Assembly: GCA_036924285.1 (NCBI GenBank)
Contig: JAYKYS010000017.1
Location: 3,701,501 to 3,765,500, forward strand
Length of the DNA stretch: 64,000 bases
Origin: Asterella californica
Taxonomy: Eukaryota; Streptophyta; Marchantiopsida; Marchantiales; Aytoniaceae
Direction: 5' to 3'
Shown here piece after piece: positions 11,931 through 51,221 of the stretch. The number at the start of each line of letters is the position of its first letter. Positions within the stretch are counted from its first letter, which is position 1. The translations under genes were made by a program, and so were the position numbers. A model generated the notes under the pieces. It was not told the DNA's origin and did no database searches. It worked only from the letters and a program-made list of their open reading frames with translations.

Positions 11931-12680
11931 ATTACTAACAATGTTATAGTAATCGAAAAGCGTTATAGTAATTGTTGTAGACAGTAGAGTTGAATAGAGG
12001 AGTTGACTCAAAGCAATGATAGTGAAAGTAGTTTTGGATAGCCGATGGAGAAGTAAGAGTTAGATTATCCGAGAGTGCAGTAAGTTTTGATTATTCGAGA
12101 GTCCCATATGTTCGGATGATTCAAGAGTCTTGGATATCTTAGTAATACGAAGAACTCGTAAGGACAATTGATTCAGATGGTCCGTATATTCAGGATTAAT
12201 CGGGGGAAATAAAGACTAAGACTAGCATAGAAGGCTTTGAGACTAAGGTGTTTATAGTACGGACTACGGATAGTATGGTTTAAGAACTGTTAGTCGACTA
12301 TCTGAGACGATTGTATAAAGAGCTTCTATACTGGTTATTCGATATGGAGTAGTTAGACAGTTAATAGTTTTAGTCTAACGGTTTACAATAGACGAATTAT
12401 TGTGACTAATTGTCCTTTTAGGGAGATCAAGGCCTCGAGGATATTCATTGTTCAATCATAATTGTATAGGGGATTTTCTGTTTCAATGTATAAAATGGAT
12501 TTGTAGTTTTAGGGTACATCCGTCTCACTTGATCTTTATCTGAATGCCTCTTGAATTCACAAATGTAAAAGAGAGTGAGAAGAGTTATTTGATATAGAGG
12601 TATTGTATTTCTGGCAATACTAGAAGTCTGGTAGACTTGTCTAGCATCCTGAATTAGCACATATTCAAAGAACTCAAAAG
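11930..12680 (+). mobile_element. 5' LTR region of outer Ty3/gypsy relic
   Basis: The segment from about 12,390 to 12,670 is clearly homologous, in the same orientation, to about 24,785-25,060. Shared landmarks are CCTTTTAGGG, ATTCACAAATGTAAA, CAATACTAGAAG and the GCACAT...TTC ending. These are the two LTR segments of one plus-strand element whose body was later interrupted by the minus-strand element at 13,537-23,434. The start near 11,930 (TGTTATAG) is a guess because the right copy is truncated and offers no comparison there. Confidence 0.6.
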
Positions 12681-13532: not shown

Positions 13533-13536
13533 ACTT

Positions 13537-13643
13537 TGTCGTGCGCATACACATCGCTACACAACATACATCGCTGTTAGAGGTACACCACACATACACA
13601 TAAACATAGACGATGTCATACACATACACAAGTGTACCACAAT
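13537..13643 (-). repeat. Terminal repeat block A (outer copy)
   Basis: A ~107-bp block starting TGTCGTGCGC on the plus strand and ending GTACCACAAT. It is nearly identical to A' at 13,937-14,044, with about five differences by eye. It is rich in ACACAT/ATACAC steps. On its left lies ACTT, matched on the far right of the element, so it is the outermost 3' end of the minus-strand element. Confidence 0.9.
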
Positions 13644-13934
13644 AATCTGAACAGAGAAATTATCATCTCCAACACTGTTACAAGATTACTCATAAACGGT
13701 CAAGCCAAACCCACTCTAAGCATGAAGAGAATCCAGGTTACACTCAACTAGACTATCCACCATAGCCTGGAGCTTGAAGGCTCAACTCGAAGAACTAAGA
13801 CCTCCAAGCCCTACCTGTGAAGTATAGCTCTAGTGAGCTCTCTCACCAACTCGCCCTAACGACACTAATGGTCTTACCGGGATGCGCCACTTCGCACTCG
13901 GTCAACCTAGCCGAGGTGCCAAACTGACGTGATA
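13643..13934 (-). repeat. LTR-like block B (3' copy)
   Basis: A 292-bp block matching B' at 23,143-23,434 in direct orientation, with roughly 22 substitutions and no obvious indels. Only about one of these is a transversion. Its minus-strand start is TATCACG where B' has TGTCACG, so the expected TG terminus is mutated here. It lies between A and A', unlike an ordinary 3' LTR. Confidence 0.92.
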
Positions 13935-13936
13935 GC

Positions 13937-14044
13937 TGTCGTGCGCATACACATCGCTACACAACATACATCGCTGTCAGAGATACACCACACATACACA
14001 TAACACATGGACGATGTCATACACATACACAAGTGTACCACAAT
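13937..14044 (-). repeat. Terminal repeat block A' (inner copy)
   Basis: Second copy of block A. On the minus strand it begins (T)TGTGGTACAC directly after the purine tract AGGGGGCGA, exactly where a 3' LTR would normally begin, and it leads into block B two bases after its end. No A-like block is found next to B' at the other end of the element. Confidence 0.9.
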
Positions 14045-14056
14045 CGCCCCCTAACT
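14045..14056 (-). promoter_or_regulatory. Polypurine tract of the methyltransferase element
   Basis: The minus-strand sequence TTAGGGGGCGA immediately precedes the TGTGGTACAC start of repeat A'. A purine run just upstream of a TG boundary is the normal primer for plus-strand DNA synthesis in LTR retrotransposons. The single C is atypical. Position relative to the repeat is the main evidence. Confidence 0.55.
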
Positions 14057-14214
14057 GGCGGTTAGGTCCCTCTAACTCCAGATAGCTCCATATCGCAACT
14101 ACGTGATATACACCTTCATGGGTGCAAGGATCAGGAGGCCGGGTGCTACATCGTCCCATCGTTAGTCGCCTGTCTGTAATCCATACCACGCAAAGATCTA
14201 ATCGGCTATCCCTA

Positions 14215-14880
14215 CTATATACATCGAGGACAAACCCACCGTCTAGTAGGAACGACACTGAGAGGTGGAGTCAAACATGACATGTGCCAACCTCTCAAAC
14301 AACCATCACACACCAACATACAGGCTGCTCCATCAGCAGATCCACACAACATACACCTCAAGCCCACGCGTACAATTGCTAAGCTTGGGTCAACGATACC
14401 ATCAATGTTGGGAAGATGACATGGTGCGCAATTACGCACATGGTCCTTCCACACAACACCATCACGGCCTTCTAACATGAGTACTCCAGAAGGTAACACC
14501 TCCCGCACTCGTAAAATAGTGCGCCCTGCGGTCACATCCAACGTCGTCGGTGCCGTCTGCTGTAGATAGATATAATCACCAGGATGAAACCTGCGAATCG
14601 ACGACCGATAACCTCCTCCTCGGATAGTCGCATATCGCAACGTGTCTCTATGCTGAACAATCGCTAGGTTCTCAAAAGCCATAGACATAACTCTCCGAAA
14701 TGTCTCTACTCGTTGAGAACATGCTCTCACCCACATATCCGAGTCATCAAGATCCAGCACCTCAGCAGAATCACGACGGATGGCCGAAGGTAGATCTGGA
14801 TCTCAGCCATACAATAGAAAATACAGTGAGAAGGAAGCCAAAGACGCTTGTCGGCTGAAACGATAGTCTATAGTCAACCA
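14215..14880 (-). pseudogene. Integrase C-terminal region with PHD finger
   Basis: The open segment 14,760-14,215 (181 residues), plus interrupted sequence up to about 14,880, continues the integrase past its catalytic core. Residues 55-105 contain a small beta-rich stretch (FHPGDYIYLQQ) like gypsy integrase tail domains. Residues 136-180 form a textbook PHD finger. The ligands C136, C139, C151, C154, H159, C162, C177 and C180 are in the C4-H-C3 order, and a conserved Trp lies two residues before C177. PHD fingers typically bind histone H3 tails. Many gypsy integrases instead carry chromodomains, so I infer a role in target-site choice. The upstream join to the integrase core is broken by a frameshift and a TGA. 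Confidence 0.85.
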
Positions 14881-14895
14881 TGATAACTACAAATC

Positions 14896-17308
14896 TCAGT
14901 CTCCCAAGTGGCCCTTCTGCAAGCCATACTTGCGCAATCCTCTCTTCACCGTCTGAACTACCCTCTCCGTCAAACCATCCGCCTCAGGATGATCTCGAGA
15001 TGTAGTCCGATGATCAATCAGCGTCTGATCACACAAGGCCTGAAACTCACCAAGGAACTCTGTACCTTGGTTTGTCAGCACTTCAGCTGGTGCTCCAAAA
15101 CGACTCAACACTCGATCTAAGAACGCGTATGCCGTCCCTTCACTCGCCTTGTTTGGTAATGCTACCAACTCAATCCACTTGGAGAAGTGCTCCACCATCA
15201 CCAACACATACCGGTGGTGACGTACGGTCAACGGTAAAGGTCCCGCAAAATCCAAACTCCAATGGTAACCCAATCCCATAATCGGTAAGGGGTGTAACTG
15301 AGGAGTAGGAGCATTAAACGATGCTCGTACTCGATCACAAACCACACATCGTGCGACAAACTGTTGCACATCGACGTGCATACCACGCCACCAATATTGT
15401 CTTTGGAGTAAGCTATGCGTACGCTTCACTCCAAAATGTCCCAACTCCTCATGGGCATGTCGTACTAACTGTGGCCTCTGAGATGAATGTGGCACTATCC
15501 GTACCCTTCCATCACCCCACACTCTAAGTACATGTCGTCCTTCTCGTCGAAATCTCTTTGTTCGTTGAAGGACACGATCTCGCTCCTTGGCACTTACTGT
15601 GCCTACTACCACACCAGTACGTAGATACTCTATCACGGTCACATCATCATGGATATCTCGCTGGTCTGGAACACCATCTCCACTCTCAAGATCTGGAGAC
15701 TCATCATCTACTCTCTGACCAGAGAAAGATACGACTTGGTCCTCCATACTAGAGTTCATGGTCAACACACAAAGAAAGGCAGATGCATGCCACCATGACA
15801 CTATCTCCTCATCAACCTCTTCATGCCACCGAGTCCCAGTCTGATCCTGCTGACTCGTGCACGGGTTGCGACTCAACCCATCGGCATCTAGGTTTGCAAC
15901 TCCAAGTCTATGCACTACATGGAAGTCATACTCATGTAAGATCAGAGCCCACCATGCAAGCTTCCCTGTAAGCTTGTCGGACTCCATCAACCACTTGAGC
16001 GGTTGGTGATCAGTGATGAGAGTAAAAGGGTTCCCAAACAGATAACATCGAAAGTGTGCAACAGCCCACACTGCCGTTAAACACTCTCCCTCATACGAAC
16101 TATACCTCACCTCCGCTGAATTGTTGGAGCGACTGGCATACGTCACCACGAACTCCTTTTTCTCATCATCATGCTGAGTCAGCACTGCTCCAAGTCCCAA
16201 CATACTCCAATCGGTGTGCAATTGGAAAGGACGCCCCCTAACGGGTCTCCTCAAGATGGGAGCAGATGTCAACTTATCCTTGAGCTCTACGAAAGCTCGC
16301 TCCTGCTCATCTTTCCACTGCCACTCCTGGTCCACCTTCATCAGCTTGGTCAACGGCTTCGCAATTGCACTAAACCCCTTCACGTATCGACGATAGAAGT
16401 TCGCCAAACCAACAAATGCTTGAACTCGACTCACATCTATGGTTCGTGGGATACGTGCAATAGCCTCAACCTTCATCTGTTGAACACCCAACCCACCTGG
16501 ATAGATGGTGTGGCCCAGATACTCTACCAACTCCTGGAAGAATTTACAGTTCCTAGGGTGTAACTTCAACCCATGAGCTCTCAATCGCTCGAACACATCT
16601 CGTAAGTGTCTCTCGTGCTCCTCCACAGTAGCACTATAGACTAAGATGTCGTCAATATAACATCTGACAAAATCCAATCCTGCTAGGATTTTGTCCATCA
16701 CCCTTTGGAACTCAGCAAGGACGTTCTTCAACCCAAATGGTAAGAACCGCCACTGATACAAACAATCCTTGCCATGAGAGTCAATTCTCCAGAATGCTGT
16801 CTTGGACTTATCTTCTTCTCTCACTGACAACTGATGATATCCTGCTCGAAGATCCAAAGTACCGAAGACGTTCACATGCCCCATTGCATCAAAGATCTCC
16901 TCAGGTCGGCATGGCATACTTATCGGACTTCGTCTGCCGATTGATAGGACGGTAGTCCTCACACATCCGCCTATCCGTGTAGTTGCCATACATATCCTTC
17001 TTGGCTGGCATAACTGTGGAAGATGCATACTCTCCATGCGACATCTCCACCAACCCAACCTCCAACAAGTCTTGAGTCCTACTCTGGATCAAGGCTCTTT
17101 CCATGTCACTGTACCTGTAAGGACGTCGAAAGATTGGCATGTCATTAGTCAAATCGATCCGTATACCAGGTCCTTTCAAGGTACCTAGATCTTTCATACT
17201 GAAGGCAAAACAATTCTTGTAGCTCTTCAGGAATCTTTGAACTCTTCGTCTTTCCTCTCCTATAAGCTTGGGTCCAATCTCCGGCTCCCAAGTATCCTCT
17301 GTCACCAT
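14896..17308 (-). pseudogene. Ty3/gypsy RT, RNase H and integrase
   Basis: The RT begins in the segment 17,308-16,901 (fingers, MPAKKDMYGNY, MCEDYRPINR, KYAMPT). After a frameshift near 16,92x it continues in a 720-codon frame ending at 14,896. Visible there are TLDLRAGYHQL, the FLPFGL motif, the catalytic YIDD at about 16,648-16,659, and the thumb YLGH. RNase H follows (LHTDWSMLGLGAVL, SSYEGE, TDHQPLKWL, DADGLSR). The integrase has a zinc-binding HHCC region (HEELGHFG...CVVC) and a DDE core with SLDFAGPLP. The second acid is replaced by Asn (LTNQG, codon at 15,070-15,072), and the final Glu is present in LTERVVQ. The lost integrase acid plus the frameshift make this copy inactive. Confidence 0.93.
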
Positions 17309-17587
17309 GCTAGAGATAGAAGATGAAGTCTTGACTGCTATTTTGTAGCCTCTGGAGCAGTTTCCTTCTGCTCACCACCAAACAACCTCCACCGCTACTG
17401 TGCAAAAAACTTCTGCAGTTCTAGCTGCAAGCTCCACACTCTCTCCTACGACATCCCATGATGTCCAAGGATGACGAACTCCACGTGCCTCGCCTCCAGC
17501 CTTTGCCTCCACCGACCCGATAAGCAAAGAGCTCAAGAGTGCTCGAGCAATAACACCCGTCGATCGCATCCGACGCTGCTCAGTCAA

Positions 17588-18541
17588 TCCAAGGCTAACA
17601 ATCCATGTCAAGCAATTCAAGTCCATTGCTTGACCCAATACTTGACGACGTGAAGTCTCTGACACCGAAGCTACTGCCGTCGTACTTGTAGTGAAACTCA
17701 TCGCTCGCTCTCTCTCATCGGCATTGGGCTCCACCAACTGCCGTAATTGAGCATCTCACACAAGCCCAAGTCCTCCATCCCTGTAAGCATGTGACGCTGG
17801 AAAGCTTACCAAAGTGGGTAACGCTACCATGGGCCGTCCCGCTAGGTTCACCACTACCATGGGTGACTTATCAACGACTCTCAATACTTGAGATCGTCGT
17901 CCTGCATCCAAGATGCCATCAACCGTGAGATGCGCTGGTCGTCTCACTCCATCATGTGCGCGCTTAAGCACCTCTCTCGGTAACAAGTTCGTCCACCACA
18001 ACCGTCGACGATGTGCACGAGATCCTACTCTTGCTGCATCTAACAACACTGCTGGTCCAACCCAAGACCACACTTGGTGCACACTCGCCATCATCTGTGT
18101 ACGAGCATCACCCAACAAAGGAACGTTCTCCAAGATGTATGCTGGAGAATCCACCTGAAACATCTGGAGATGTCGTAAGATCCGTAACATCTCCCTGAAC
18201 ATCCTAGATCGCGGGTCATGTAAACCCTGACCTCTCCTAGCACGCGTGTGACTTTGACATGGCCATCCGGCTATCACCAAGTGAATGGTGCCAACAAACG
18301 TAAGATCCTGCGTTCCCAACAGCAAAATATCTGACGGTAATGCTTGCTGGTATCCTCTAACAGCTGATATGGGCAACAACTCAGGATATCTCTGCACCAA
18401 ACGTGCCACATGTCACAATGAAACGCTTCTCGCAATCTCATCTCTCTCCACATACAAGTATCGTTGTACTTGTATGCCTGCCTGCAATACCGCAGCCAAA
18501 CATGTGCTGATCTCTCCAAACAGCTCCAGCACACACACACC
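17588..18541 (-). pseudogene. C5-cytosine DNA methyltransferase domain in retroelement polyprotein
   Basis: A DCM/DNMT catalytic domain between protease and RT. In order: motif I (VLELFGEISTCLAAVLQAG, where the usual FxGxG glycines are partly lost), motif II acid (YLYVERDE), motif IV GWPCQSHTRAR with the catalytic Cys codon at 18,257-18,259, motif VI YILENVP (about 18,122-18,130), and motif VIII VGSRAHRRRLWW. A short target-recognition region of about 80 residues follows, then motif IX DERERAMSF and motif X RRQVLGQAMDLNCL. These enzymes move a methyl group from S-adenosylmethionine to cytosine C5. Two in-frame stops lie inside the domain (at 18,413-18,415 and 17,756-17,758), but the same frame carries motifs on both sides and continues into RT. 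The altered motif I argues that this copy had also lost cofactor binding. A separate captured host gene is unlikely, because frame and order are shared with the polyprotein. Confidence 0.92.
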
Positions 18542-18999
18542 CTCCTCTTGATACTGCCATACAATGAGAGTCGTATCCAACGGTGATAAGGTCACAAGGC
18601 AAGTAGCAGGAACAACCATTTGTTCCTCTACTGGTGGTACAAAGGCTTCACTCCAAACCTGCTGCACCAACTGATCAGCATACTGCTACAACTCTCCACT
18701 CGAACTCCAGAGTGGAACATCCAAGGCAGATGGTACTAACGTAGACATGCTAGGCATGTCCTCCACCTCTTCAAAGACCGGAGTATCCTCTGCATGAGCA
18801 TTGCCCTCCAACAACTCGTCCGACCAAGTGATGACCGAACTGAACCCTGCAATGGATGTCATCGTCCCTGGTGTAGGCTCCGTCGTCCCAACTCTAGCAC
18901 TGAACCGCACGGTAAGCGACTCACTCGTCCCTCATCAGACTGCCAACCTGGTCTGTAAGATGTTGTCTCTGCCCAATAGTCGATCACGAACCCCATAGG
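18542..18999 (-). pseudogene. Linker between protease and methyltransferase
   Basis: After the protease stop, the frame continues as MGFVIDYWAETTSYRPGW, a segment typical of the end of the protease-proximal region. It then shifts frame near 18,93x and reads on through an acidic, Ser/Thr/Pro-rich stretch to methyltransferase motif I. A TAG interrupts it at 18,686-18,688. No other domain is recognisable. Confidence 0.7.
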
Positions 19000-19830
19000 T
19001 TACAACACAGCACCTCCAACCAATACATCATAAGACTCTGCGGTTGTAACGATGGCCTTGGCCCTCACCATAGAGCCATCTGTGGGATGATCTGACCGAA
19101 CTCTCACCGTCAACATCTCACATGTCATGTGTAGAGCCGTACCTCCTGATCCCTCTAGAGATGTCTGCAACTGGAATGGACATCTCTCCACCTCGGACTT
19201 CTTTAGACCTAAAACAATACACGCCGTCTTTCCCAACATCAACGGTTGGGCTCCAGAGTCTAACAAGACCTTCTGAGGTCGATACACTTTCCCTGAAGGT
19301 GCCACCAAACAGAAGATACCACTTCTGTTGTCCAACAACACCACACCTGGTGCCAAACCAGCACGGTCAATCGTCGGCCTAGCTGGTAACTCATCTAACC
19401 TAGCAGCCGCCGCTTGCCAAGTACCACTAGTAGCTGTCTTGATCCTCGACTCCATGGACACGTCTACCGCCTCTCGCTGAACTACTTCAGCACTAGAGGT
19501 AACTACATCCTCGCTCTCACTGAGCATGGCCGCCAACTGGAACACTGGAGCCAAGTTGACTCTCAATGCTCTCATATCCGTGGCTGAGAATAGTGAGACT
19601 CGCAAAACTGCTGTAGCTGCCCCCAACATCGAGTTTGACGTCGCATCCACAGACGTCGAGAGTGGACTCACATCACACCCACTCCTAGATGTCGATGCCT
19701 CCAACTCTACTGCATCATCGGTAGGCTGTTTAGGAACCATAGATGTGGTCCTCAACGCCTCCGATAACGTGAACGATTGGGGAAGCCTGGCCTGTCTACC
19801 AGCCTCTCCGCGTTGTGGATCCAACTCCAC
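19000..19830 (-). pseudogene. Retroviral-type aspartic protease region
   Basis: A 276-codon open segment whose last third is the element's protease. VLLDSGAQPLML carries the catalytic Asp-Ser-Gly at residues 191-193 (19,252-19,260), followed by a hydrophobic flap region and ending VLVGGAVL. The first 150 residues are low-complexity Ser/Thr/Val-rich linker. It is preceded directly, in the same frame, by the gag tail after a TAA, and ends at another TAA where related proteins read on. Its role is to cut the polyprotein. Confidence 0.88.
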
Positions 19831-20802
19831 TTACGCACCTCGTGACTCGGAGGCACGTACTGCACCTCTAGTCACTGCCGCATATGCCTCAATCTGCGCC
19901 ACGTCAGCCATGTAGTCGAAGTCACCTCCTTCTCCTTCGTAAGACGTGGAAGCCTCTGTTCCACCTGATCTCTGCTGAGCCATAGCCGTACTAGCTATCC
20001 TCTGCTCCAACTGCTCAATCCGAGCAGCCATACCGGCTTCTGACGTCGTAGCAGGCGGTGGACCGATCGATCCTTTCCCAGGTGCTGAACCTCTACCTCC
20101 AGCTCGACCACCACGGCCTCACTGAGCTCCTCCGCCTCGTCCATGATCAGTCTTCCCTTGCCGCAACTCGGGATGGAGATCAAAACAACGGTCACTACTG
20201 TGACCGGGTCGTCCGCAATGCTCACATTGCCTAGGTACTGCTTGAGACGTCCCTGACGTCTCATAACCTCTCCTCTGTGGACAGTCCTTCTGCTGATGAG
20301 GACTATCACACTTCCAGCAAGGACCCGCTTGCTGCTGACTAGAGAAGGACGGCATGGACTTCTGTCCACCAGATCCTCCAACACCTCTCTGAGATCGTGA
20401 CTGCTCCGCACGATCCTTACCATCACCACCACCACACTGTTGCGTAGTCTGTGATCCTTGAGAAGAGGTGGTCGCTCCATGTGGTGTCTCCTTGCCGTAC
20501 CGGACAACCACCACCCTCTCCTCCACCATGTTGAGCTCAATCCGCTCAGCCAGACCAAAGACAACCGCCAACGTCGGAGCTTTATCTCTAAGGAGAGTAA
20601 CATCTCTAACTCTCATACGCAGCTCCCGGTCTAGTATCCCATACCAAAACTGGACTGCCTGTGCTTCCGTCACCCCTTGGGTAACGCTGATCAATCGCCT
20701 CATGCGAGTAAACGCCTCGCGTAGGCTCTCTCCAGTCTTCCGCTGGAACTCCTGCAGACTCCTCAACTTGTCGGTCCGCACATCCTGATAGTTCTTCCTC
20801 AA
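19831..20802 (-). pseudogene. Gag C-terminal half with two zinc knuckles
   Basis: The segment starts in a helical capsid-like region (SLQEFQRKTGESLREAF, then QAVQFWYGIL) and is followed by a Gln/Gly/Ser-rich linker. Two nucleocapsid knuckles come next: CWKCDSPHQQKDC (C-x2-C-x3-H-x4-C, slightly short) and CEHCGRPGHSSDRC (standard C-x2-C-x4-H-x4-C). Then come an RG-rich patch, a TGA near 20,119 and a short coiled-coil-like stretch (ARIEQLEQRIAS). The same frame resumes after the stop and runs into the protease, so gag and protease were one frame in the ancestor. It packages the element RNA. Confidence 0.88.
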
Positions 20803-20814
20803 ACATTGGAAGAA

Positions 20815-21433
20815 CTAAACCACAGGGTTAAACCTTGATGGTATCTCGCTCACACTACCACCTGCTCCACTACTTGTGGACGCACCGCTGGTAGTAGATA
20901 CTCTGTCACCTGTGGATGTACCACTGCTACTGACACCTAAACTCGCAAGTACAATGCCTCCTGAAACTGCACCAGTAGTGACAGAAACGTAGTTGGGAGA
21001 CCAATGTTGTCTCCACAACTCGATCTCAACATTGTAATCCCGCCTGAACTCGTGATAATCGTCCATCGGCGGTCCCTCCAAGTGTTGGAACAAACCCTTC
21101 CACGCCATGAAGGGTGTAAACAACTGTGGGTTCCGCATCTGCTGCAGATCGCACCAACTGTCAAACTCTTGGATGAAGTCATCCAGCTCAATGATAACAA
21201 CTGTACTCGAGTAACATCGAGGTCTCTTCGTGACCCCATAGATCTCGTCCATCAGAAAATGCGCTGTCTGCGTATGACTCGTCCTTTGGAACAACCGACG
21301 GCAATGGTGTAGGTAGTCGGTACCTCACTCCACTCTGTGTATACTCACTGTTCGAGAAGTCCTCACCAGAACCTCCCGAGAACTCTGTGATGAGAGAATC
21401 CCGATAACACACTCCCCAACTGGAATGTCGCAA
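20815..21433 (-). pseudogene. Gag N-terminal segment
   Basis: Open segments 21,433-21,188 and 21,294-20,815 encode the region upstream of the knuckle-bearing gag half. It contains a Trp-rich helical part (DFIQEFDSWCDLQQM, FMAWKGLFQHLEG) typical of gypsy capsid, followed by a Ser/Thr/Gly-rich low-complexity stretch. A stop and frame change at about 20,805-20,815 separate it from the rest of gag. The true start codon is uncertain. Confidence 0.6.
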
Positions 21434-23142
21434 TCCCCGTCACCACCGTAACCACCACTTGCCTAACCCCGCTCCTACTGAGTTCACCTATCTCCTACTA
21501 GGACGGTCAAGGTAAGGGCAACTTGTACCTGCCATCATCACAGACAGCCTCTCACGGTCTATTGGTCGTCACTCCAACCGCACCGTGAGAGAGACAAAGG
21601 TAGTCTGACTGGTCCGCAACTCTAGTCTCACTACCAATAGCACACTAGAGTGAACTCACTCCGGAAGTCAAGCGCCAACACAAGCAAACGCGACGCACAA
21701 ACAGGAAGCAGAATATGGAGGGGTTCCAACCACAAGAAGTCCAAACGATAATCCTCCACACTCAAACATTCACATAAAGGGAAATCCAGCCCCACCTGGA
21801 CTGACGACTCCTCGTCGGTGATCACATGCACAATATATGATCACCAACTGTCGTAACTGATACTTGAGATCACTAACTAGATGTCTACACCTCTAGTAGC
21901 TCCCAAAATATCCACGTGGTAGCTCTTACTAGCTCACCCAAGACATCAGCCACCAACTGTCTCCATACGCGTCCTACGGTATAGGCAAACACTACCACAA
22001 CTATAGCTTCCCCCTAATACTGTGAGGTCACCCTACCACTCCTCTAGGAACGTGCGAGAAGGTCTCCTACTACCTTATACAAGTCCATAAGTACTTGCAC
22101 GTATCCCTATAGGACACCAAGAGCTATTGGTCTAGTGGTAAAGCCAAAGCTAAGACTACAGAGTTAAGAGTCCAGGTCCAGGAATAGTGTTGGGATGAGT
22201 GACCAGCTGGTTTTACACTTCCCACACAACTGAAACTTGGATACCTCTCTCACGCACGTCAGCAAGATGGCTTGCGGCGGGCTCAGGCTCAGGCTCCGCT
22301 CCGTCTCTGCACTCTCGCACTCTCGCTCTCACGCCTCCGCACTCACGCACCTCTGCTCCTCGAAGCCTCGAACCCTCCTAACACGCACTCCACACCTCGA
22401 CACTCCTGCTCACTCTCCACTCCGCTCCGCTTGGAGTAGAGTAGAACGAGTAGAGCACACCAAAAGAGACTCTGCTACACCTCGAATTGCAGAAGATTGC
22501 ACCAAAAGAGGCTCCAAAACAGCAAAAACAGCTTGCGGGTGCACACGGGTAACCAAAAATCTGACGTAGATCAGCAAGATCACCCAAAACCAACTCGGAC
22601 ACCACTACAACAGATTCACAAATGCACCATACACACTTCACGAATGTATACACACACAAGAGAACTCCTAAACTCGAGTTTCCACACGAAATTGCACAAA
22701 AATCTGACGTAACTAGTCTTTTTGCACTTTCAGGTGACACGGTAGTGAACTTCGACATGTCATAACTTCTTCGATCCTTGGCCAAACTCCACGAAACTTA
22801 GTGCACTAGAATCGTCTCTCCAATGTGCTTCCAAAGAACCCACTCCGGTCTGACATTGACAAGTACTCTGTCTGCCACGCCCAAACGCGCAATCCGGCTC
22901 CAACAAGTCACTTCAAGAACATTCTTCAGAATTTCTGCAGCGCTTCCGCATGACAGAAATCTCCACTCGACCCCAACAACAGCAAGTCGATCTGCGACCA
23001 GCAATGTAGCATGCGCCCACACACCTCGATCACAGCTCCAAACAATCAAGCACGAACGACAACGTCCGAAGATACCAACGGACGATTTCAGATCAGCGGG
23101 TTCTTACTGAACTCCATCTCGACCTGCACTCAGTTCTTCGAG
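21434..23142 (-). other. Long leader of the methyltransferase element
   Basis: About 1.7 kb between block B' and gag without a supportable gene. It includes a GC-rich stretch of CTC/GCTC repeats (about 22,280-22,420). I could not find a primer-binding site (TGG-type sequence complementary to a tRNA 3' end) immediately inside B'. A weak tRNA A-box-like word lies at 22,129-22,150. Confidence 0.6.
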
Positions 23143-23434
23143 TAATCTGAACAGAGAAATTACCATCTCCAACACTATTACAAGATTACTCACAAACGGT
23201 CAAGCCAAACCCACTCTAAGCACGAAGAGAATCCGAGTTACACTCAACTAGACTATCCACCATAGCTTGGAGCTTGAAGGCTCAACTCGAAGAACTAAGG
23301 CCTCCAAGCCCTACCTGCGAAGTATATCCCTAGTGGGCTCTCCCACCAACTCGCCCTAACGGCACTAACGGCCTTATCGAGATGCGTCACTTCGCACTCG
23401 GTCAACCTAGCCGAGGTGCCAAACTAACGTGACA
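23143..23434 (-). repeat. LTR-like block B' (5' copy)
   Basis: This 292-bp copy of block B is the 5' end of the minus-strand element. It begins TGTCACGTTAG on the minus strand and is flanked outside by ACTT, matching the other end. Unlike a normal LTR pair, neither neighbour of B' resembles block A. Confidence 0.92.
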
Positions 23435-23438
23435 ACTT

Positions 23439-24784: not shown

Positions 24785-25060
24785 AGGCAAGTTACTATAG
24801 CTGATTTTCCTTTTAGGGGCTCACGGTCTCGAAGATCTTCATTGATCAATCACAAATGTATAAGGGGTTTTCTATTTCATTGTATAAAAGGGTTTGTAGT
24901 TTTGTGAGACATCTGTCCCACTTGATCTATATATGAATGCTTCTTGAATTCACAAATGTAAAGGACTGTGAGAAGAGTAATTTGATACGGGGCACTGTAA
25001 TTTTGACAATACTAGAAGCTGGTAGGCATGTCTTGCATCCTGAATGAGTGCACATTCGAG
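24785..25060 (+). mobile_element. 3' LTR segment of outer Ty3/gypsy relic
   Basis: Homologous to 12,390-12,670 in the same orientation, with shared CCTTTTAGGG, TTCACAAATGTAAA, CAATACTAGAAG and CATCCTGAAT. It directly follows the truncated RT, so an internal deletion fused RT to the 3' LTR. The exact LTR ends are unresolved. Confidence 0.65.
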
Positions 25061-38569: not shown

Positions 38570-41500
38570 GGTGCAAAATTTTCCCTTCTCACCGCTTCCG
38601 TGCTCAAAATTTCCCTTTGTGAAATTGGACACGGAAGCGCTGCCCAATTTTTGACAGCCATCTTCTCGCTTCTTCCCAAGCTGTAATCGAGCTTCCCTGT
38701 CTCTCATTCTCCAATTCGATCTCTCAGCTATCAATTTCTCTACCCTACCGCACCTCTACTCCTGAACCCATGGACAGAAGACGCTTCTGGATGTCTGAAT
38801 GTCTTCAGAAGACGACTTTGTGCAATTCGTATCAAGAGTAGATTGGATTGAGTTTTGTGTTGAGAAAAGCTTGGTACGAATCCTGAGTGACTTGGTGAGT
38901 TGATTGTTGTTTCGAGTAGCTGGAAGTTGGGAACCAGGCTTGTGCCTCCCGATCTTTCGAGCTTCTCAAATCCACATCTTCCTAGAGAGACTAGAAGGTT
39001 GGAAAGACTGACAGAATGCGCGAGAAGACGTGAGGGTCTTTTATGGATCTCTTCTGTCCGACCCATAACAGCCTATTCTTTCTTCTTCCCGAACATAGAA
39101 GAGAGTTGTGAGAAGTCTTGCTAGCAAAATCTGGAGAGAATGGTCGAGGGTCATGTCTTCTCATCATGCGGCAAGCTTCTTCTGTGTGTGTATGAGAGGT
39201 GAGAAGTCGGAAGAACAGAGTATGAATGTCTTGTGTCTGTTGTGAGCTTAGATTGCTTGTCAGAAGCAGAAGACAGGTGAGACCAGTGAAGAGAAGTCTG
39301 GCCGCGAGAAGTCTTTCGAGAACGTCATTGAATCAGAAGCTGTCTCGGGAGTCTTCCTGGAGGTCACTGTCACAGTAGGAGCCCATGACCATCTTCTGAA
39401 CTTCTCATACAATCTGCTTCTCTCATATTTTGTATCTTCTGTTAGGAAGTAGGATGAAATGCAAGGTGGGTTGTCTTCTTGGTAATCCATGCGGTGCCTT
39501 GCTTAGTTAGGATTTTTTAGATCTAGCTCGGAAGACGAGAGGTACTTAGGAAGCACTGTTAGAATCCTGGAAGACGGAATAGCTGTCTTCTGGAAGATTA
39601 GATTCGACTTCTGAGAGTGAAAGCTAGACTGTGAGGACTTAAGGAAGGACTGAGCCTTCGGTTCACAACAAGTACGTCGCTTCTGTCAAAGAGTCAACAC
39701 AGCTGAGGAAGAGCAATCAGGAGTTGCAGGTACGTCTATAGCAGCGTGACCAGGAGGTTCTGCGGGTCAGAGATAAGATCACCATCCTTGCAGGGAAGAA
39801 GACAACGTGGAAGACACTACGGGAAGCCGCAGAAGCACAGGCTGCAGCAGAGAAGATGCAGCAAGAAGCAGCAAGAAGCTCGCACGCAGGGATTACTAGC
39901 ACAGACCGTGGAAGCACTTCGCAAGAAGTTCAACTTCACTACGGATAGGAAGCTCCTCACCCTAGCTAGGGAGTGGGATGACGAATCCAGAGTGATGCTA
40001 GTAGAGTGCAAGGAGAGTATGTTCCGTTACCTGGATCGGCAGATTGAGAGTTTGAAGACGCTTTATGGTCTTCCTTCGATTCCACCATCAACGGCTACAT
40101 CTTCCCATACTCCAGGACCAGCGATCGGGACAGATTTGGAAAAGGAGGAGTTTGACCTTGCTGTCCACTTGGTAGTGACAGCGTTGGAAGCCGAGAAGAC
40201 TACAGAAGAAGCCCTGGAAGACAGGAAAAAGAGCTGTCTTCCCAGGTGTTTCGAGTGGAGGAGGTGACTTCCTCGGACCACTGCGAAGTCACCCCAGCTC
40301 CTAGTGTCGAACCAGTGTCACAGAAGAGCGGGGAAGCGCAAGTTGACTCAGCTTCCCAGAAGACGCTTCCGTCTTCCGAAGCCGCACCAGCTGAGCCAGC
40401 CACTAATGTCGAGGAGGAAGCTACCTCAGTGACACCCGAGGTACTCGCAAGGCTTCCCACCTTATCAGAAGCCGAGTTAGGAGTTCAGGTAGGAGTAGAT
40501 CAGGAGGAGATCACACCCAATGAATTAGAGTAGACAACAAGTCAAGAAGACATGTGACTTGTCTAATTTTGATAAGAATCGAAATTGCTATCTTAGGAGG
40601 TGACAGTTTAACTGTAATTTTAGATGACTGTCCATGTGGCAAGGTAGGCAGCGCATGAGTAGGAAGTAAATGACTAAACCAAGGTAGGGAACCGACTGCA
40701 TGTGAGGTGGTGGTATTCTGACAGCGCCTCATCTCCTTGATTGCAAGTGAGGATTGGAGGAGAACTCTCTCTTGCGACTCAAGGTGGTAGTATAAGTTAG
40801 AATGCAGAGTAGGATTCAGTGCGCACTAAACACATTACTGTACGTACACATAGACTCATTGTGAACACAATGTATACACATTACACTTGATGTTAGCGAC
40901 ATACGAATAGATTGGGAATACACCGGAGGGGTCTATATTCTTCCTTTGTCAACAGTGGTTCGAAGATGTAGATGGAGGTAGTGGACAGTTTAGAGCAAAA
41001 AACGGCATCAACGTGTAGTCCTATTGCTAAGCTGGTGTGCTGAGGAGTAGGAGTAGGAAGTAGAGGGAGTGAGCTTCCCGACACCAATGTGCCTTCTTCT
41101 CAAGGAATGGATTTTGCATTTGAGTGCAGAAGCTTTGTCTGTGTCTTCTGGGTAGCGGATTTCTTCGAAATCACACCCAATTGTACATGAGAAGCATTCT
41201 TCTGGAGTGGCGGTGGTTGTTAGCAGTTGTCAAGTTTGCAGCTTGGCTCATCCAGTGGAGCACTTCGGATCCACGTACGGACGGTCCTATGGGTAAGTGA
41301 TCTCAGAAGACAGAGTAGTCCGAGCAGCGATAGAAGAAGAAAGAAGACTTCTTCTCACAACAGAAGACGACATCCTCAAGTAGAAGACTGTGTAACTGTA
41401 AGCGAATTTGTTGTCTTCCTCCCCAAATTACTACAAGCAGGGATGGCTTGTAAGTCAGGATCCGGACTAGAAGCCTGTCGGAGTCTTAATTTCTCGTTCT

Positions 41501-41688
41501 TATCTTGTTTTTTCTTGTTTGGATTTTCTCTTCTTCCCCATCTTCTCTCATCTTCCCATCTTCCTATCTTCTTCTAGTGAGCTTCCGAGACTTCTATTGA
41601 GCTTCCGTGAAGGTGAATGTCGTTGTAGTGCTGTAGGAAGACTGTTTTCGTAGACAGAAGCCTGGGAAGGCTACATGAGGCATACACC
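38570..41688 (+). mobile_element. Left arm of large inverted repeat
   Basis: About 3.1 kb whose reverse complement corresponds to the right arm 42,130-46,433 at roughly 80% identity by eye. It begins TGGGTGC and ends GGCATACACC next to LTR1. It lacks about 1.2 kb present in the right arm, namely the N-terminal half of the coiled-coil protein. It is saturated with GTCTTC/GAAGAC. Non-coding parts resemble an LTR-element leader. Confidence 0.75.
39746..40533 (+). pseudogene. Truncated TE-borne coiled-coil protein (left arm copy)
   Basis: Open segments 39,746-40,267 and 40,246-40,533 in two frames encode the C-terminal half of the protein seen in the right arm. Matching parts are LAREWDDESRVMLVECKESMFRYLDRQI, cut here for length, KTLYGLP, FDLAVHLVVTALEAEK and an acidic Glu/Pro/Ser-rich tail. 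The N-terminal globular region is deleted, and a frameshift separates the helix from the tail. No catalytic motif is visible. Confidence 0.7.
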
Positions 41689-42129
41689 TGTAGTGACGCA
41701 GGATTACTCCTTTTGCCCATTTAGTATACAAGATATCGTTCTCACAGAGGATTTGCACAAGTAACGCTGCTCTAAGTTCTAAGATCTGTTCAAACATACA
41801 AACACACGGGTTTTGTCTAGAAATCTCGTCTTCTCACAAAACCACGCGTCTTCCAGACACGCAAAAAGGTGCTCTGGAACTAAACAAACAACTACTAACT
41901 AAAATATCACACAACTATTCACAGAGAAGCTCGAGAAGATGATCTTCCTGCTTCCAGATCACTTCTTCCGGTCTTCTCAGTACCGTCTTCCCGAAGTAAT
42001 TCTCGGCTTCTGGGGGTTCAGCTCGGCTTCTCACACCTCCAGAAGACTGTCTTGCTTCGCAGAAGTCGACTAGGACGGCTGTTACACCTTGCTCTCGTAC
42101 TCACATTCCAACGGATTAGATTAATCACA
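41689..42129 (-). mobile_element. LTR1, centre of the inverted repeat
   Basis: A 441-bp segment with TG...CA ends (minus strand TGTGATT...ACTACA). It is homologous over its whole length to LTR2 (50,510-50,945), which is in the opposite orientation. On the minus strand it is preceded by AAGGGGGCATACACCC, a plausible purine tract, so it is the 3' LTR of the right-arm element. GGCATACACC lies on both sides in inverted orientation. Confidence 0.8.
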
Positions 42130-45100
42130 GGGTGTATGCCCCCTTAACCTTCCTAGGCTTCTGCCTACGGAAATGATCTTCTTGCAGCACTACAACGACA
42201 TTCACCTTCACGGAAGCTCAATAGAAATCTCGGAAGCTCACTAGAAGAAGGTAAGAAGATGGGGAAGATGAGAGAAGATGGGGAAGAAGGGGAAGAAGGG
42301 AAAATCCAAACAAGAGAAAACAAGATTAAAAGGAGAAATTAAGATTCCGACAGGCTTCTAGTCCGGATCTTGACTAACAAGCCATCCCCGCTTTTAATAG
42401 TTTGGGGAGGAAGACAACAAACGTGCGTACAGTTGCACCGTCTTCTACTTGAGGATGTCGTCTTCTGCTGTGGGAAGAAGGCTTCTTTCTTCTTCACTTT
42501 TGTGCTTTGACTACTCTGTCTTCTGGGATCCCTTACCCATAAGACCGTCCTTACGCAGATCCTAAGTGCTCTACTGGACGAGTCAAGCTACAATGCCACA
42601 CCTGCTGATAGTCACCGCCACTCAAGAAGAACACTTCCCATGCACAATTGGGAGCAAATTCAAGGAAATCCACCACCCAGGAGACACGAATTAAGCTTCT
42701 GCACTCAAATCAGCAATCCATTCCCCGAGAAGAAGTCACATTAGCATTGGGAAGCTCACTCTCTCTACTTCCTGCGCCTACTCCTCGACACATCAGTCTA
42801 GACAACAGGACTGCACGAGGATGCCGTTCCTTGTTCCTAAACTGTCCACTACCTCTATCTACATCCTCGAACCACTGCTGGTAATGAGCATGCAGACCCC
42901 TCCTATATAATCCTAGTCTCTTTGTATGTCTCTAACATCGGGTGTAGTGTGTGTGACTACCCAACTCATGTGTCTCTGGCTGCACTGAAAGATGTGTATG
43001 AGCATGTGGTAGCAGCTCGAATTCCTACTCTTTGATCTTACTTATGCCTTCACCACGAGAACACAAAGGAACCACCACTAGGGAGAGAAAAGCTGCCTCT
43101 CCACATGCAAACGGTTTCCCCTGTCTATTCTTGCGCTTCCTATTCTGCCACATGACTGCCTACTAATTTTACACTGAAAACTGCCACCCTTAAGATAGCA
43201 TGTTCGATCCTACTAAATCTGGAATTGTCAACTTCGGTTACTAGCTACTCTGATTGCTCGGTGGTAATCTCTACCTGATTGACTCCTATCGGAACTACTA
43301 GTTCGGCTTCTGATGGGCTGGGAAGCCCTGCGATTACCTCGGGTGTCACTGAGGTGGCCTCCTCTATAGTCGTCGCTGGCCCTGCTGTTGTTGTTGCTGC
43401 TTCTTCTTCGACTTCGGCTTCAGCTTCCGACTCTGCTTCTGCTTCTACTTCTGCTTCTGCTTCGGAAGACGGAAGCGTCTTCTGGGAAGCAGGGTCGAGT
43501 GGTGCTTCCTCCATCTTCTAAGACACTGGTGCGGGACTAGGGACCATGGCGACCTCATAGGGGTCCGAGGAAGTCGCTTTCTCCACACGGAATACCTGGG
43601 AAGACGGCTCTTCTTCCTGTCTTCCAGAAGACATCCTATCTTCCGGGGCATCTTCCGGTGTCTTCTCGGCTTCCAACGTTGTCACTACCAAGTGCACAGC
43701 GAGGTCGAACTCCTCCTTCTCCAATCTGGATCCAGTCGATGATGCTGGAGCTTGGGAAGACGCAGTTGCAGGTGGCGGAATCAAGGGAAGACCATAGAGT
43801 GTCTTCACTCCCTCTATCTGCCGATCCAAATACCTAAACATGCTCTCCTTGCATTCTACCAACCTCGCTCTGGACTCCTCGTCCCACTCTCTAGCCAAGG
43901 CTCTCTTGCTCTTCCTCAGTTGAGTAAGCTCCTTGGCAGAAGAGGCTGCTTCCGTCTTGTACCTTGCTGCGAGCTTCTCCGTGGTTCGGAGACTAGCTTC
44001 CAGCGCTTTTGTCTTCTTCTGGCCTTCTTCCTGACGCATCAAGGTGCACATACCGAATCCAGACTGTAGCGGCTTCTCCTGAGCCTTCGCTCTCTTCTCC
44101 AGCAACTCCATAGCTGGCTGGATCTCTGCATGGAAGAAGGCGCTGAACTCTTCCAGTCTTCTTCCTGTGGAAGACAAGTTCATCTCCAACACTCGCTCTG
44201 AGGTGTCGACCTTGGCAAGGATGCCTCTTCCACCACAATGACCTTCTGCTTCTACGCACAGGAAGAAGTTACTCTTCTCATCTTTCGGGGTGGAAGATCT
44301 CTCCCCCTGGTAGAAGCGGTCCTCTTCACTGCGCTTCCTCGCATCGCAATAGGAGTGTCCATCCATCCGTCGTCTTCTGGAGTCTTCGGAAGACTCCTTG
44401 GTGTTGCAGAAGCGGTCTTTTGCTCCGATCGGGTACTCAGCGGCTCTTCCTCCGAGTCCAAATCCGATCCTGAATGAATGAGGGAGGTGGGCTTCCTAAG
44501 AACACTTCTAGGACCCATCTTCCTCAGAGGCGTGGCGTCTTCCGACCCACTGGAGTCATCTTCCCTCACCAGAAGCGTCTTCTGATGAGTGCTTGGTCTC
44601 AGCTGCGGCATCAGAGTGGGAGGGGAGTTGCGGCTGCTGCTCGGTCGTCGTCTTCCGAGGTCTCCTCCTTCGCCTCATGTTGCCATGTTGGCCCATATCT
44701 CACTAACTGTCCTTCCGTGAGATCCCCATGGCTACGTACAAGTAACACAAGAAAGGTGTCAAGTGCCCTCCTGCCGGGGTACCCAAGTATGCTAGCTCCG
44801 TCTGTACATACACGTGGAAGAACGAGCCCCAGTTGACGGGCACTCCTTCGTCGCACACAGCTTCGAGGAACTCCACGTCCTGATCTCCAAGGTACCTCGT
44901 CTTCTGCGCTTTACCCTTGGGAAAGAGATGCAGTAACAGCTTCGCCAGAAGTCGCTTCCTTGGCTCCCGGTAAGACTCTATCTTCCAACCGTTCCTTCCT
45001 TGCCTGTCCTCCAGGAAGAGGCAAGTTGTGCTCCCAGGCACATGCCACTCACTCACGATCCTGGGCAAGATCTTCTTCTCAAGCCAATACCCTCGGTTCT

Positions 45101-46433
45101 CGGATTCTGATCTGTGGAAGGTCCTACGCCACCAATCTTCAGTCTAGGAAGATGGCCTTCCTCGAGCTACGCCTGCCTTCACAAGTACACAGTTGCGAGG
45201 CGGTAATGCTGTCCAAACCTCCTCCAGAAGTCCTTGGTCAGCGAGGTTCCAATCCCATAGGAACAAGTCAAGACCCAACTCCTTGAGGAAGGGGGTGGCC
45301 TCGGTCAACTCTGCTGCGGGTAGCACCAACCCTCGAGGATGCATCGACATACTGGAACTAAGCCACACGCACTTACTGTGAGCTGAAGGCTCAGTCCTTC
45401 CCAAGTGCCCACAGTCTAGCTTCTACTTCTCAGAAGAAGAAACTAGTCTTCCAGAAGACAACAACTCCGTCTTCCGGGATTCTAACAGTACTTCCTAGAT
45501 AGCTCTCATCTTCCGAGCTATATCTAAACAATCCTAACTAAGCAAGGCCTCGCATGGATTACTAAGAAGACAACCCACCTTGCATTACATCCTACTTCCT
45601 ATCAGAAGATACAAGATTCGCGAGACGTAGAGTGCATAACAGTTTCAGAAGATGGTTGCGGACTCCTGCGATGACAGTGGTCTCTGAGAAGACTCCCAGG
45701 ACAGCTTCCGATTCAATGTCTTCTTCGGAAGACCTCCCGAAGTCAGGCTTCCCTTCACTGGTCTCACCTGTCTTCTTCTTCCTACGCGCAATCTATCCTC
45801 ACAACAGACTCAAGACATTTGCACTCTGTTCTTCTGACTTCTCACCTCTCATACGCACTCAGAAGAAGCTTGCTGCTCGGTGGGAAGACATGACCCTTCG
45901 ACCATTCTCTCCAGATTCTGCCAGCAAGTCTTCTCACAACTCTCTCCTAAGTTTGGGAAGAAGAAGGAATGGCTGCTATGGGTCAGACAGAAGAGACCCG
46001 AAATGGACCCTCACGTCTTCTCGCTCATTTTGCCAGCCTTTCAGTCTTCTAGTCTCTCTAGGAAGATGTGGAGTTGAGAAGCTTGGAAGACCGGGAGGTA
46101 CAGGCCTAGTCCCCGACTTCCAACTTCTCGAAATAACAAAACAACTCACCAAGCCACTCAGGATTCGTAGCAAGCCTCTCTTAACACAAAAGCAAAGCAA
46201 ATCCACTCTTGATACGAATTGTGTACAGTCGACTTCCGAGGACAGTCTTCCGAAGATGTTCCAATCTTCCGAAGCGTCTTCTGTTCAAGGTTTCGGGAGT
46301 AGAGAGATGGTAGGGTAGGGAAATTGATAGCTGGGATCGTCAATTTGAGGACGATTGTTAGGGGAGCTCTAATTGAACTCAGGAAGAAGTAGGAAGATGT
46401 CTGACGGAAATTGAGCAGCGCTTTCGCACCCAA
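42130..46433 (-). mobile_element. Right arm of large inverted repeat (LTR element body)
   Basis: About 4.3 kb read on the minus strand: leader (46,433-45,410), a broken coiled-coil protein gene (45,404-43,245), a 3' region rich in CTTCTTCC, then the purine tract and LTR1. No reverse transcriptase, integrase or protease motif appears, so it is a non-autonomous LTR element. The 5' LTR in matching orientation was not found. Confidence 0.7.
43245..45404 (-). pseudogene. Broken TE-borne coiled-coil protein (right arm copy)
   Basis: Successive open segments (45,404-45,144; 45,068-44,703; 44,611-44,252; 44,366-43,518; 43,514-43,245) make up one former gene with frameshifts. The order is: a start region with FLKELGLDLFLWDW; a globular part (YREPRKRLLAKLLLHLF, VNWGSFFHVYV, FLCYLYVAMGI); a basic Ser-rich linker with KMRRVTS; a long coiled coil (LEASLRTTEKLAARY and onward); and an acidic tail expanded by GAAGC/GCTTCT repeats into Glu-Ala runs. 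The globular part matches the 691-codon frame at 47,482-49,557 in order and spacing. Function unknown. Confidence 0.72.
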
Positions 46434-47481
46434 TGTCACAATAGGAAAATAGGGATGGGGGGTAATCGATCAGGCTGCCTACAACCAACCGGAGAAGCGC
46501 GGGGGATACCAAACAAGACGAGAAGCAGTGGGAAGGGAAAGAACATGGGAAGAACCTCTACAGTCTTATGTCTGCTTCCCGAGTTGTCTTCGACCTTCTG
46601 CGCGCTTCTGGCTCTAGTCCCAGCTCCAATGCGACCCCACTGAGCTGCTTCCGTCGTCAGCTCCTCACTACGCCTCAATTGATTAAGCCGTCCTGTAACA
46701 CACAAGAAAACCAAAAGATGCTCGAAAGTAGTAATTTAAGGATCGAACCCACAGAGATGCAAGTAAAGATCATCCAAAAGTAGTAAACACGTGACAAAGG
46801 TGATTCTTTATAGTTGTCTTTTATTCTCACGGGCAGAAATCAGTCCCGGTAGAGATACAAACTCAGATCTATCCAACAAGACAGAGTTGACAATCCTGAC
46901 AAATAAACATAACAGGTACTGAACAGGTCAGGGACCTCAAGAAACAGATGAACAACAGAGAAACAGAGCCACGGACGGAAATGTCACACGAAGAAGTACT
47001 GCTGAAGTGCTACTAAGTAGCCTCTAACAACATAAATGCTAAATATCTTCACACTGAGTTACTTTCACTACTACTGCTCTCGGAAATCTCTGGCGAAGAA
47101 GACTCTTCTTCCGCCGAAGAACCAGATTGAACTTCTTCCTAAGTGTTCTACCAAAGAACAACTTCTTCCAAAGTCAACTTCGCCCAAAACCGTCTTCGTA
47201 GTAAACTAACTCCGCAGATGCTGGTCTATTCTCAGTCCTCGCCGTAAACGTTCTACTCTGATTTCAAATGTCAACAGCAAATTCTTCGGCACCCAGACTA
47301 ATTCCTACCACAGCAAACTACGATACTTCGTAGGTAAATCTTCAGACGAAGACAAAACACTCAATGGCTCCGCAAACTCAGGAAATAGAAAACTCAAAAA
47401 ATGATAAAACACATAGAGGTCCAGAATACGAACAACACAACGCTTATATACAGATTTCCCCGAAGATGACGGATCTTCTTC
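46434..47481 (-). other. 3' region of the 691-codon element
   Basis: Downstream (minus strand) of the long frame. It carries CTGTGGGTTCGATCC near 46,750, a wording common near LTR boundaries of plant elements, and an A/T-rich possible polyadenylation region. No LTR pair could be assigned. The left limit is where homology to the inverted-repeat arm begins. Confidence 0.4.
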
Positions 47482-50945: not shown

Positions 50946-51221
50946 GTGACCGATCATCGATGCTCAAAATATCAGCGCGATGTAGTGAATCGCCTGATAC
51001 GAGCGCTTCTGCCACTCCTTGAATTTCGGGTCAGAAATTGGTACTTCAAGCGCTTTCTCCTCCTCAGTGATAAGATCCCATAGATCTTGTCCCTGCAGGA
51101 AAGTCATCATCCGTAACTTCCACACTTGGTAGTTGTTCTTGTCGAGCTTCTCTCCAGTGATCAAAGACACAGACTTCGCCATAGCTGCAATGTCACAATT
51201 GCTCTGTTCTGTACGCGGCAA
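50946..51221 (-). pseudogene. Ty1/copia gag N-terminal fragment
   Basis: The minus-strand frame reads LTGEKLDKNNYQVWKLRM, LQGQDLWDLI, then KFKEWQKRSYQAIHYIAL, the standard opening of copia gag. A one-base shift then gives LSIDDRS. It is cut exactly at the end of LTR2. The 5' LTR, primer-binding-site remnant and leader lie to the right, so this is the 5' part of the same element whose 3' part starts at 38,056. Confidence 0.88.

What the first reader, a model, noticed from the sequence alone, without database searches (positions are those of the whole stretch)
17588..18541. DNA methyltransferase captured inside a Ty3/gypsy polyprotein
Seen: all main DNMT motifs in order (ELFGE, VERDE, GWPCQ, ENVP, GSRAHRRR, ERERAMSF, LGQAMDL) between protease and RT, in the same reading frame as RT. 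Known: DNMT acquisition by retrotransposons was reported for dinoflagellates and the charophyte Klebsormidium, with self-methylation of element DNA proposed. Inference: this is a further case or lineage, perhaps in a different host. It would be an element that writes the host's silencing mark on itself.
Basis: partly seen in the sequence, partly recalled or inferred. Interest (0 to 1): 0.92.

Follow-up and report, generated by a model that had tools for sequence, protein, structure and literature searches.

The report
Jumping gene with methylation writer and reader
A dead jumping gene, in DNA that probably comes from a moss or liverwort, carries both a domain of the kind that writes the DNA silencing mark and a domain of the kind that reads histones; an unbroken relative from environmental DNA has the same build, which such elements would likely use to mark and aim their own new copies.

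Summary
On the minus strand, 13537-23434 is one decayed Ty3/Gypsy element with a Dnmt3-type cytosine methyltransferase (17573-18571) between protease and reverse transcriptase. An unbroken environmental relative (L005) shares the B/A junction and the length of B (106 vs 107 bp) and has a TMV-type leaky-stop context (UAG-CAR-YYA) between gag-PR-DNMT and RT-IN-PHD. It is not a private capture: DNMT relatives occur in Sphagnum, Marchantia, Riccia and Calypogeia; the RT falls in one clade with Klebsormidium gypsies; DNMT and RT-integrase divergence rise together; PHD is present in 33 of 35 clade proteins long enough to show it. DNMT gypsies with DIRS-like repeats were published for Klebsormidium nitens (de Mendoza 2018), so the kind is known. 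Not found in print: the family in bryophytes (one paper calls such transposons absent from land plants, "such as tracheophytes"), the PHD partner, the leaky stop. Self-methylation and PHD targeting are inferred. Host and copy number could not be checked.

The parts
23435..23438 (-). target-site duplication AAGT, 5' side of the element
   Evidence: flank ...GGAAGT | TGTCACG; same 4 bp at 13533-13536
23143..23434 (-). repeat A1 (5' end, starts TGTCACG)
   Evidence: 271 of 292 positions identical to A2; 20 of 21 differences are transitions
21325..23142 (-). 5' leader; extent inferred
   Evidence: longest minus-strand frame inside it 139 aa (22378-22797); not scanned for domains
19831..21324 (-). 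gag pieces with CCHC zinc knuckle, broken by stops
   Evidence: Retrotrans_gag E 0.014 and zf-CCHC E 0.0082, both below Pfam's cut-offs, on 20119-20802; pieces
19000..19830 (-). aspartic protease piece (VLLDSGAQPLMLG)
   Evidence: sequence; motif shared with relatives; no Pfam hit in this copy
17573..18571 (-). Dnmt3-type cytosine methyltransferase domain with two in-frame TGA stops
   Evidence: fold of the close relative P0001
17332..17340 (-). TAG-CAG-TCA, fits the leaky-stop consensus UAG-CAR-YYA, at the DNMT/RT border (not in the RT frame of this copy)
   Evidence: same place in L005 3489-3497
14896..17371 (-). reverse transcriptase, RNase H, integrase (H2C2, rve), with one frame change
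   Evidence: RVT_1 7.1e-25, RT_RNaseH 2.2e-32, Integrase_H2C2 2.3e-18, rve 9.1e-13
14215..14802 (-). integrase C-terminal region carrying the PHD finger
14221..14355 (-). PHD finger (C4HC3)
   Evidence: PF00628 E 1.6e-9; best PDB matches KDM5-family PHD1, DPF2; further DPF3, BAZ2B, PHF21A
14044..14052 (-). polypurine-like tract AGGGGGCGA directly before B1
   Evidence: AGGGGGGGCA at L005 6939
13937..14043 (-). repeat B1 (107 bp)
13928..13943 (-). B/A junction CACGACA-GC-TATCACG
   Evidence: CACGACA-GC-TGTCACG in L005 from 7048; one match in each
13643..13934 (-). repeat A2
13537..13642 (-). repeat B2 (3' end, ends CACGACA)
   Evidence: 104 of 108 alignment columns identical to B1
13533..13536 (-). 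target-site duplication AAGT, 3' side

Best explanation
This is a decayed copy of a Ty3/Gypsy retrotransposon that carries a Dnmt3-type DNA methyltransferase domain between protease and reverse transcriptase and a PHD finger behind its integrase; working relatives would likely use the methyltransferase to methylate their own new DNA and the PHD finger to steer integration toward chromatin whose histone H3 tail is unmethylated at K4. Shown here: domain order, the PHD finger, catalytic motifs still present around two stops, A-coding-B-A-B repeats with a 4-bp duplication, and an unbroken relative (L005) with the same junction and domain order. Inferred: (1) gag, protease and methyltransferase are made as one polyprotein, and a leaky UAG lets some ribosomes go on into RT-RNase H-integrase-PHD, so the methyltransferase would be packaged in Gag-like amounts with the RNA. 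(2) After reverse transcription it methylates the cDNA. (3) The cDNA passes through a circle; the DDE integrase cuts at the B/A junction (CACGACA-GC-TGTCACG) rather than at ends next to the polypurine tract, and inserts it with a 4-bp duplication, which leaves A-coding-B-A-B. (4) The PHD finger takes the place of a chromovirus chromodomain. The gain to the element may be entry into silent chromatin as already marked DNA, which would spare host genes and itself.
Against: No activity was tested. In de Mendoza 2018 the K. nitens gypsy DNMT gave no methylation in yeast (called inconclusive there). CpG observed/expected of the element (0.76) is not low for this window (0.39-1.02 in 4-kb steps), so no CpG-specific self-marking scar is seen; the transition excess fits host methylation as well, and the control repeats are on the whole more diverged. 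Other active-site residues are kept less well: Arg after the His in 89 of 127 rows, Glu of ENV in 100 of 112, Gln after the Cys in 75 of 82. P0161 and P0244 lack the PHD finger, P0244 with its DNMT kept. No protein with a bryophyte name shows the PHD: those records end before it or lack it. P0245 has the DNMT between RNase H and integrase, and no protease motif was found upstream in P0245 or P0246. The window's UAG motif is out of frame with RT. The A-coding-B-A-B layout rests on one copy plus one circular contig, which alone cannot show the repeats. Mantel support falls to r 0.46, p 0.05 with six elements when the window, one Marchantia row and the inferred pair are left out. The C-terminal model is weak (pTM 0.36), and its top Foldseek rows (PHF1) superpose badly (rmsd 13-14).
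Confidence: 0.55

Rival explanations
1. The element is as described, but the methyltransferase serves another end: it modifies the RNA genome, or damps the element's own expression so that the host tolerates it.
For: PMC5890265 (parts 1-4 of 7 read) lists RNA methylation (for its LINE elements) and a slowed retrotransposition rate as options and found no yeast DNA methylation for the K. nitens enzyme. CpG is not depleted here.
Against: The fold and sequence are of the DNA-methylating Dnmt3 type. The paper showed CG methylation by the dinoflagellate DIRS enzymes.
Confidence: 0.25
2. An ordinary LTR gypsy whose repeats were rearranged after insertion; the A-coding-B-A-B layout is an accident of this copy, and the DNMT is a passenger.
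For: The copy is old and broken: A1/A2 differ at 21 of 292 positions; B1/B2 at 4 of 108 columns, so the two pairs need not be of one age.
Against: L005 has the same order polypurine tract - B (106 bp) - CACGACA-GC-TGTCACG, and B is 107 bp here. The 4-bp duplication sits exactly at the outer ends of A1 and B2. The Fig. 4 legend of PMC5890265 states a DIRS-type repeat structure for the K. nitens element. The DNMT's catalytic Cys is kept in 81 of 82 rows.
Confidence: 0.12
3. The DNMT was inserted by chance as a retrocopy of a host gene into one gypsy copy.
For: None found beyond the decay of this copy.
Against: The same place between protease and RT is seen in Marchantia (P0157) and P0244, and DNMT after protease in L005 and metagenome proteins: 11 of 13 proteins whose DNMT begins after residue 250. 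DNMT and RT-IN divergence go together.
Confidence: 0.02
4. The excess of transitions in the repeats comes only from host methylation of a silenced element and says nothing about self-methylation (compatible with the main reading).
For: By the script's rule the 20 transitions in A fall in 4 CpG, 7 CHG and 9 CHH contexts, as plant host enzymes would give.
Against: Nothing here separates the two sources.
Confidence: 0.6

Closest known systems
KnitGypsy-Dnmt3 of Klebsormidium nitens (de Mendoza 2018, PMC5890265)
   Same: Gypsy domains, Dnmt3-type enzyme in the polyprotein, repeats described as DIRS-like; K. nitens gypsy RTs fall in the same clade as the window's
   Different: Host here probably a bryophyte; PHD finger not mentioned ('PHD' occurs 0 times in the main text); leaky stop and 4-bp duplication not mentioned in the parts read. 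Its own sequence was not in hand
SymbioDIRS-Dnmt3 of Symbiodinium (PMC5890265)
   Same: Dnmt3 in Pol; A-coding-B-A-B repeats
   Different: Tyrosine recombinase there, DDE integrase here; unrelated RT class by the paper
Chromoviruses (Ty3/Gypsy with chromodomain)
   Same: A histone-reader domain behind integrase
   Different: PHD finger instead of chromodomain; RT outside the rows with a chromodomain
DIRS and PAT-like elements with split direct repeats (PAT recalled)
   Same: Repeat layout and a likely circular intermediate
   Different: No tyrosine recombinase found; DDE integrase and a 4-bp duplication
Ginger1 transposons with PHD (PMC2836005)
   Same: Gypsy-type integrase with a C-terminal PHD in at least one family (passages)
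   Different: DNA transposons, no RT, no DNMT (recalled)

Membership tests
Ty3/Gypsy (Metaviridae) | RT, RNase H and integrase in that order | tested here: met
Ty3/Gypsy (Metaviridae) | short target duplication (4-6 bp, recalled) with TG...CA ends | tested here: met
   AAGT on both sides, TGTCACG...CACGACA, one copy
Ty3/Gypsy (Metaviridae) | two like, full LTRs flanking the coding part | tested here: not met
   A at the 5' end, B-A-B at the 3' end; so it is filed by domains, not by LTR layout
KnitGypsy-Dnmt3 kind | Dnmt3-type enzyme in a gypsy polyprotein | tested here: met
KnitGypsy-Dnmt3 kind | DIRS-like repeat layout | tested here: met
   legends
KnitGypsy-Dnmt3 kind | common descent with the published K. 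nitens element | tested here: inconclusive
   K. nitens gypsy RTs P0155, P0165, P0170 are in the same 59-row clade, but none carries the DNMT in its protein record
Dnmt3 | unpermuted motif order and closest solved fold Dnmt3 | tested here: met
Dnmt3 | groups with host Dnmt3 in a tree | tested here: inconclusive
   only a partial human DNMT3A row; deep forks open
DIRS | tyrosine recombinase in place of a DDE integrase | tested here: not met
   integrase core rve and H2C2 found on the 720-aa piece, no recombinase family at E up to 1 on the nine pieces scanned
Chromovirus | chromodomain behind integrase | tested here: not met
   only PHD families at E up to 1 on the C-terminal piece

The most novel reading that the evidence does not exclude
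A family of retrotransposons as old as the green lineage owns a complete writer-reader kit for silent chromatin: Dnmt3 made in Gag amounts to pre-mark the cDNA, and an H3K4me0-reading PHD on the integrase to place it, with a DDE integrase that opens a DNA circle at an internal palindrome. Integration of pre-methylated DNA into matching chromatin would be a new retrotransposon life style, alive in land plants.
Probability: 0.28. Interest if true: 0.87.

Novelty: new variant of a known kind. Interest (0 to 1): 0.66.

Why it matters
Elements are normally silenced by cytosine methylation; here a lineage keeps its own methyltransferase, and most of its long pol proteins also keep a histone-reader finger. 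That DNMT-RT members sit in Marchantia polymorpha, a genetic model, makes the open question of what a transposon gains from methylating DNA testable by knock-out. [quoted passage not shown] Some genes annotated as DNA methyltransferase in bryophyte genomes (for example P0002 in Sphagnum) are likely parts of such elements.

Tried and rejected
Own-genome copy count: the genome search (own) was asked with the same request (11 times) and never answered. Genome contigs: the one scan gave L005 only. tRNA and Rfam scans of the window found nothing. Empty site: joining the two flanks found no uninterrupted copy in the window, only direct repeats of the surrounding element. A first DNMT profile was spoiled by RT columns and replaced. 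An H3K4me3-type PHD was considered; the Trp expected there (recalled) is Gly here. The C-terminal model is weak as a whole, so only its PHD part is used. Left out of counts: the RT tree used 85 of 124 rows with the domain (82 over 80% covered, 3 kept on purpose); the DNMT tree used 32 of 139 rows over 70% covered plus 5 outgroup rows; the transition test used 5 of 13 inverted pairs and two direct pairs, and left out the tandem repeat.

In those listings I saw no paper on DNMT gypsies in bryophytes or on a PHD finger in this family; the library holds only open-licence papers, so this is no proof.

Full report
What is there. The finding lies inside one mobile element on the minus strand, 13537-23434. 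Reading along that strand: repeat A1 (23434-23143), a leader, gag pieces with a CCHC knuckle, an aspartic protease piece (19000-19830), the methyltransferase (18571-17573), reverse transcriptase, RNase H and integrase (17371-14896), an integrase tail with a PHD finger (14355-14221), a polypurine-like tract (14052-14044), then B1, A2 and B2. The copy is dead: stops and frame changes interrupt gag-protease, methyltransferase and polymerase. It lies inside another repeat-flanked element (direct repeats 12406-12666 and 24801-25057, 82% alike).

The PHD finger. Pfam PF00628 matches at 1.6e-9. The nearest solved fingers by sequence are KDM5-family PHD1, DPF2 and others, among them DPF3, BAZ2B and PHF21A. 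In the fold search the top rows (PHF1) superpose badly; the clean ones include DPF2/3, BAZ2A with unmodified H3K4 peptide, ATXR5 with H3, BHC80 and UHRF1. From recall, most of these read H3 unmethylated at K4, the state that the ADD domain of animal DNMT3 also reads. Within the 59-row RT clade, 35 rows reach at least 220 residues past the integrase core and 33 have the finger by a profile built from 10 of them; P0161 and P0244 do not. No protein with a bryophyte name reaches far enough and shows it; the window itself does.

The family. The DNMT search gave 114 proteins from 1080 candidates; the 7 rows with a species name are Sphagnum (2), Calypogeia (2), Marchantia polymorpha, M. paleacea and Riccia, 6 of them on contigs of 5-49 Mb. 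In Riccia the DNMT and RT-integrase genes have consecutive tags on contigs of one length, R1sor_014310 and _014311. In M. polymorpha, P0144 and P0157 hold DNMT and RT in one protein model. The window's DNMT falls in a 13-row group with support 100/98 that holds Calypogeia, Marchantia and Sphagnum. The RT search gave 1136 proteins, of which 120 were listed. A tree of 85 rows puts the window in a clade of 59 with SH-aLRT 100, apart from rows with a chromodomain and from animal rows; its named rows are Klebsormidium nitens, Closterium, Tetstr (read as Tetraselmis striata, recalled), Calypogeia, Riccia and Marchantia. No row of that clade is named as a vascular plant, but most rows have no name. 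With Riccia added r is 0.77 (9 elements, p 1e-4); without the inferred pairing 0.79 (p 7e-4); with one Marchantia row removed as well 0.70 (p 0.003); with the window removed too 0.46 (p 0.05). So one old association is favoured, weakly at the deepest level. In P0245 the DNMT sits between RNase H and integrase, which means either a move or a second capture.

An unbroken relative. L005 is a 9285-bp contig whose 127-bp ends are identical, so it closes as a circle; this may be collapsed repeats in the assembly or a real circle. Its gag start lies at one end of the contig and continues, across the shared ends, into a protease-DNMT frame; after TAG-CAA-TCA, in the same frame, follows RT-RNase H-integrase-PHD (gag by likeness to P0236-P0239, not scanned with Pfam). 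UAG-CAR-YYA is the type I leaky-stop consensus of tobamoviruses (PMC3542737, passages). In the window element and in L005 this nine-base motif occurs once each on the coding strand, both at the DNMT/RT border. In the window it is out of frame with RT.

The ends. A1 starts TGTCACG, B2 ends CACGACA, and AAGT flanks both. The internal B1/A2 junction reads CACGACA-GC-TATCACG; L005 has CACGACA-GC-TGTCACG at the same place, and the stretch from polypurine tract to junction is 107 and 106 bp. In an ordinary LTR element the integrase ends abut the polypurine tract (recalled); here they lie about 106 bp further on. The layout A-coding-B-A-B is what de Mendoza et al. describe for SymbioDIRS and, by legend, for KnitGypsy-Dnmt3 (PMC5890265; parts 1-4 of 7 and passages read). 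My reading is that reverse transcription makes a BA repeat, the DNA circularises with two such repeats, and the DDE integrase opens the circle at the B/A junction. The step is inferred.

Methylation scars. A1/A2 differ by 20 transitions and 1 transversion, B1/B2 by 3 and 0 (and one indel), against 166 and 87 in 5 of the 13 inverted repeat pairs and two direct pairs of the window (Fisher p 0.0011). The tandem repeat at 31090 (3 and 5) was left out. This fits deamination of methylated cytosine, by host or own enzyme. CpG is not especially rare (0.76).

What is new. The kind is published: DNMT gypsy with DIRS-like repeats in K. nitens. [quoted passage not shown] I found no report of the family in bryophytes, of the PHD partner or of the leaky stop in the listings. 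Passages of PMC12344493, PMC10538959, PMC10952607, PMC13398078, PMC6453930, PMC8616336 and PMC3286476 added none. PHD fingers behind a gypsy-type integrase are on record for a Ginger1 transposon (PMC2836005, passages).

Limits. Genomic copies were not counted. Selection was not measured on codons. No activity was tested.

Noticed in passing
window 12406-12666 and 24801-25057: Direct repeats, 82% alike, that bracket the DNMT element; it is nested in another repeat-flanked element.
   Followed up: partly
window 54487-59006 and 60697-63998: Further gypsy-type pieces (RT, integrase, a gag-like frame) without matches to the DNMT or PHD profiles.
   Followed up: no
window 38610-50946: 13 long inverted repeat pairs (74-90% complementary, up to 470 nt).
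   Followed up: no
P0229 (Haematococcus lacustris): A gypsy with both chromodomain and PHD, outside the DNMT clade: a second link of PHD with integrase.
   Followed up: no
P0245, P0246: P0245 has the DNMT between RNase H and integrase; P0246 has no protease motif upstream of its DNMT and integrase-like residues, by eye, after it.
   Followed up: partly
L005: A retrotransposon circle filed in a cyanobacterial metagenome-assembled genome, probably eukaryotic contamination.
   Followed up: partly
DNMT rows of P0001-P0246 and L005: Catalytic residues lost mostly by changes of the C-to-T or G-to-A type (Arg to His 22 and to Cys 10 of 127; Glu to Lys 10 of 112), as if copies decay by cytosine deamination.
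   Followed up: partly
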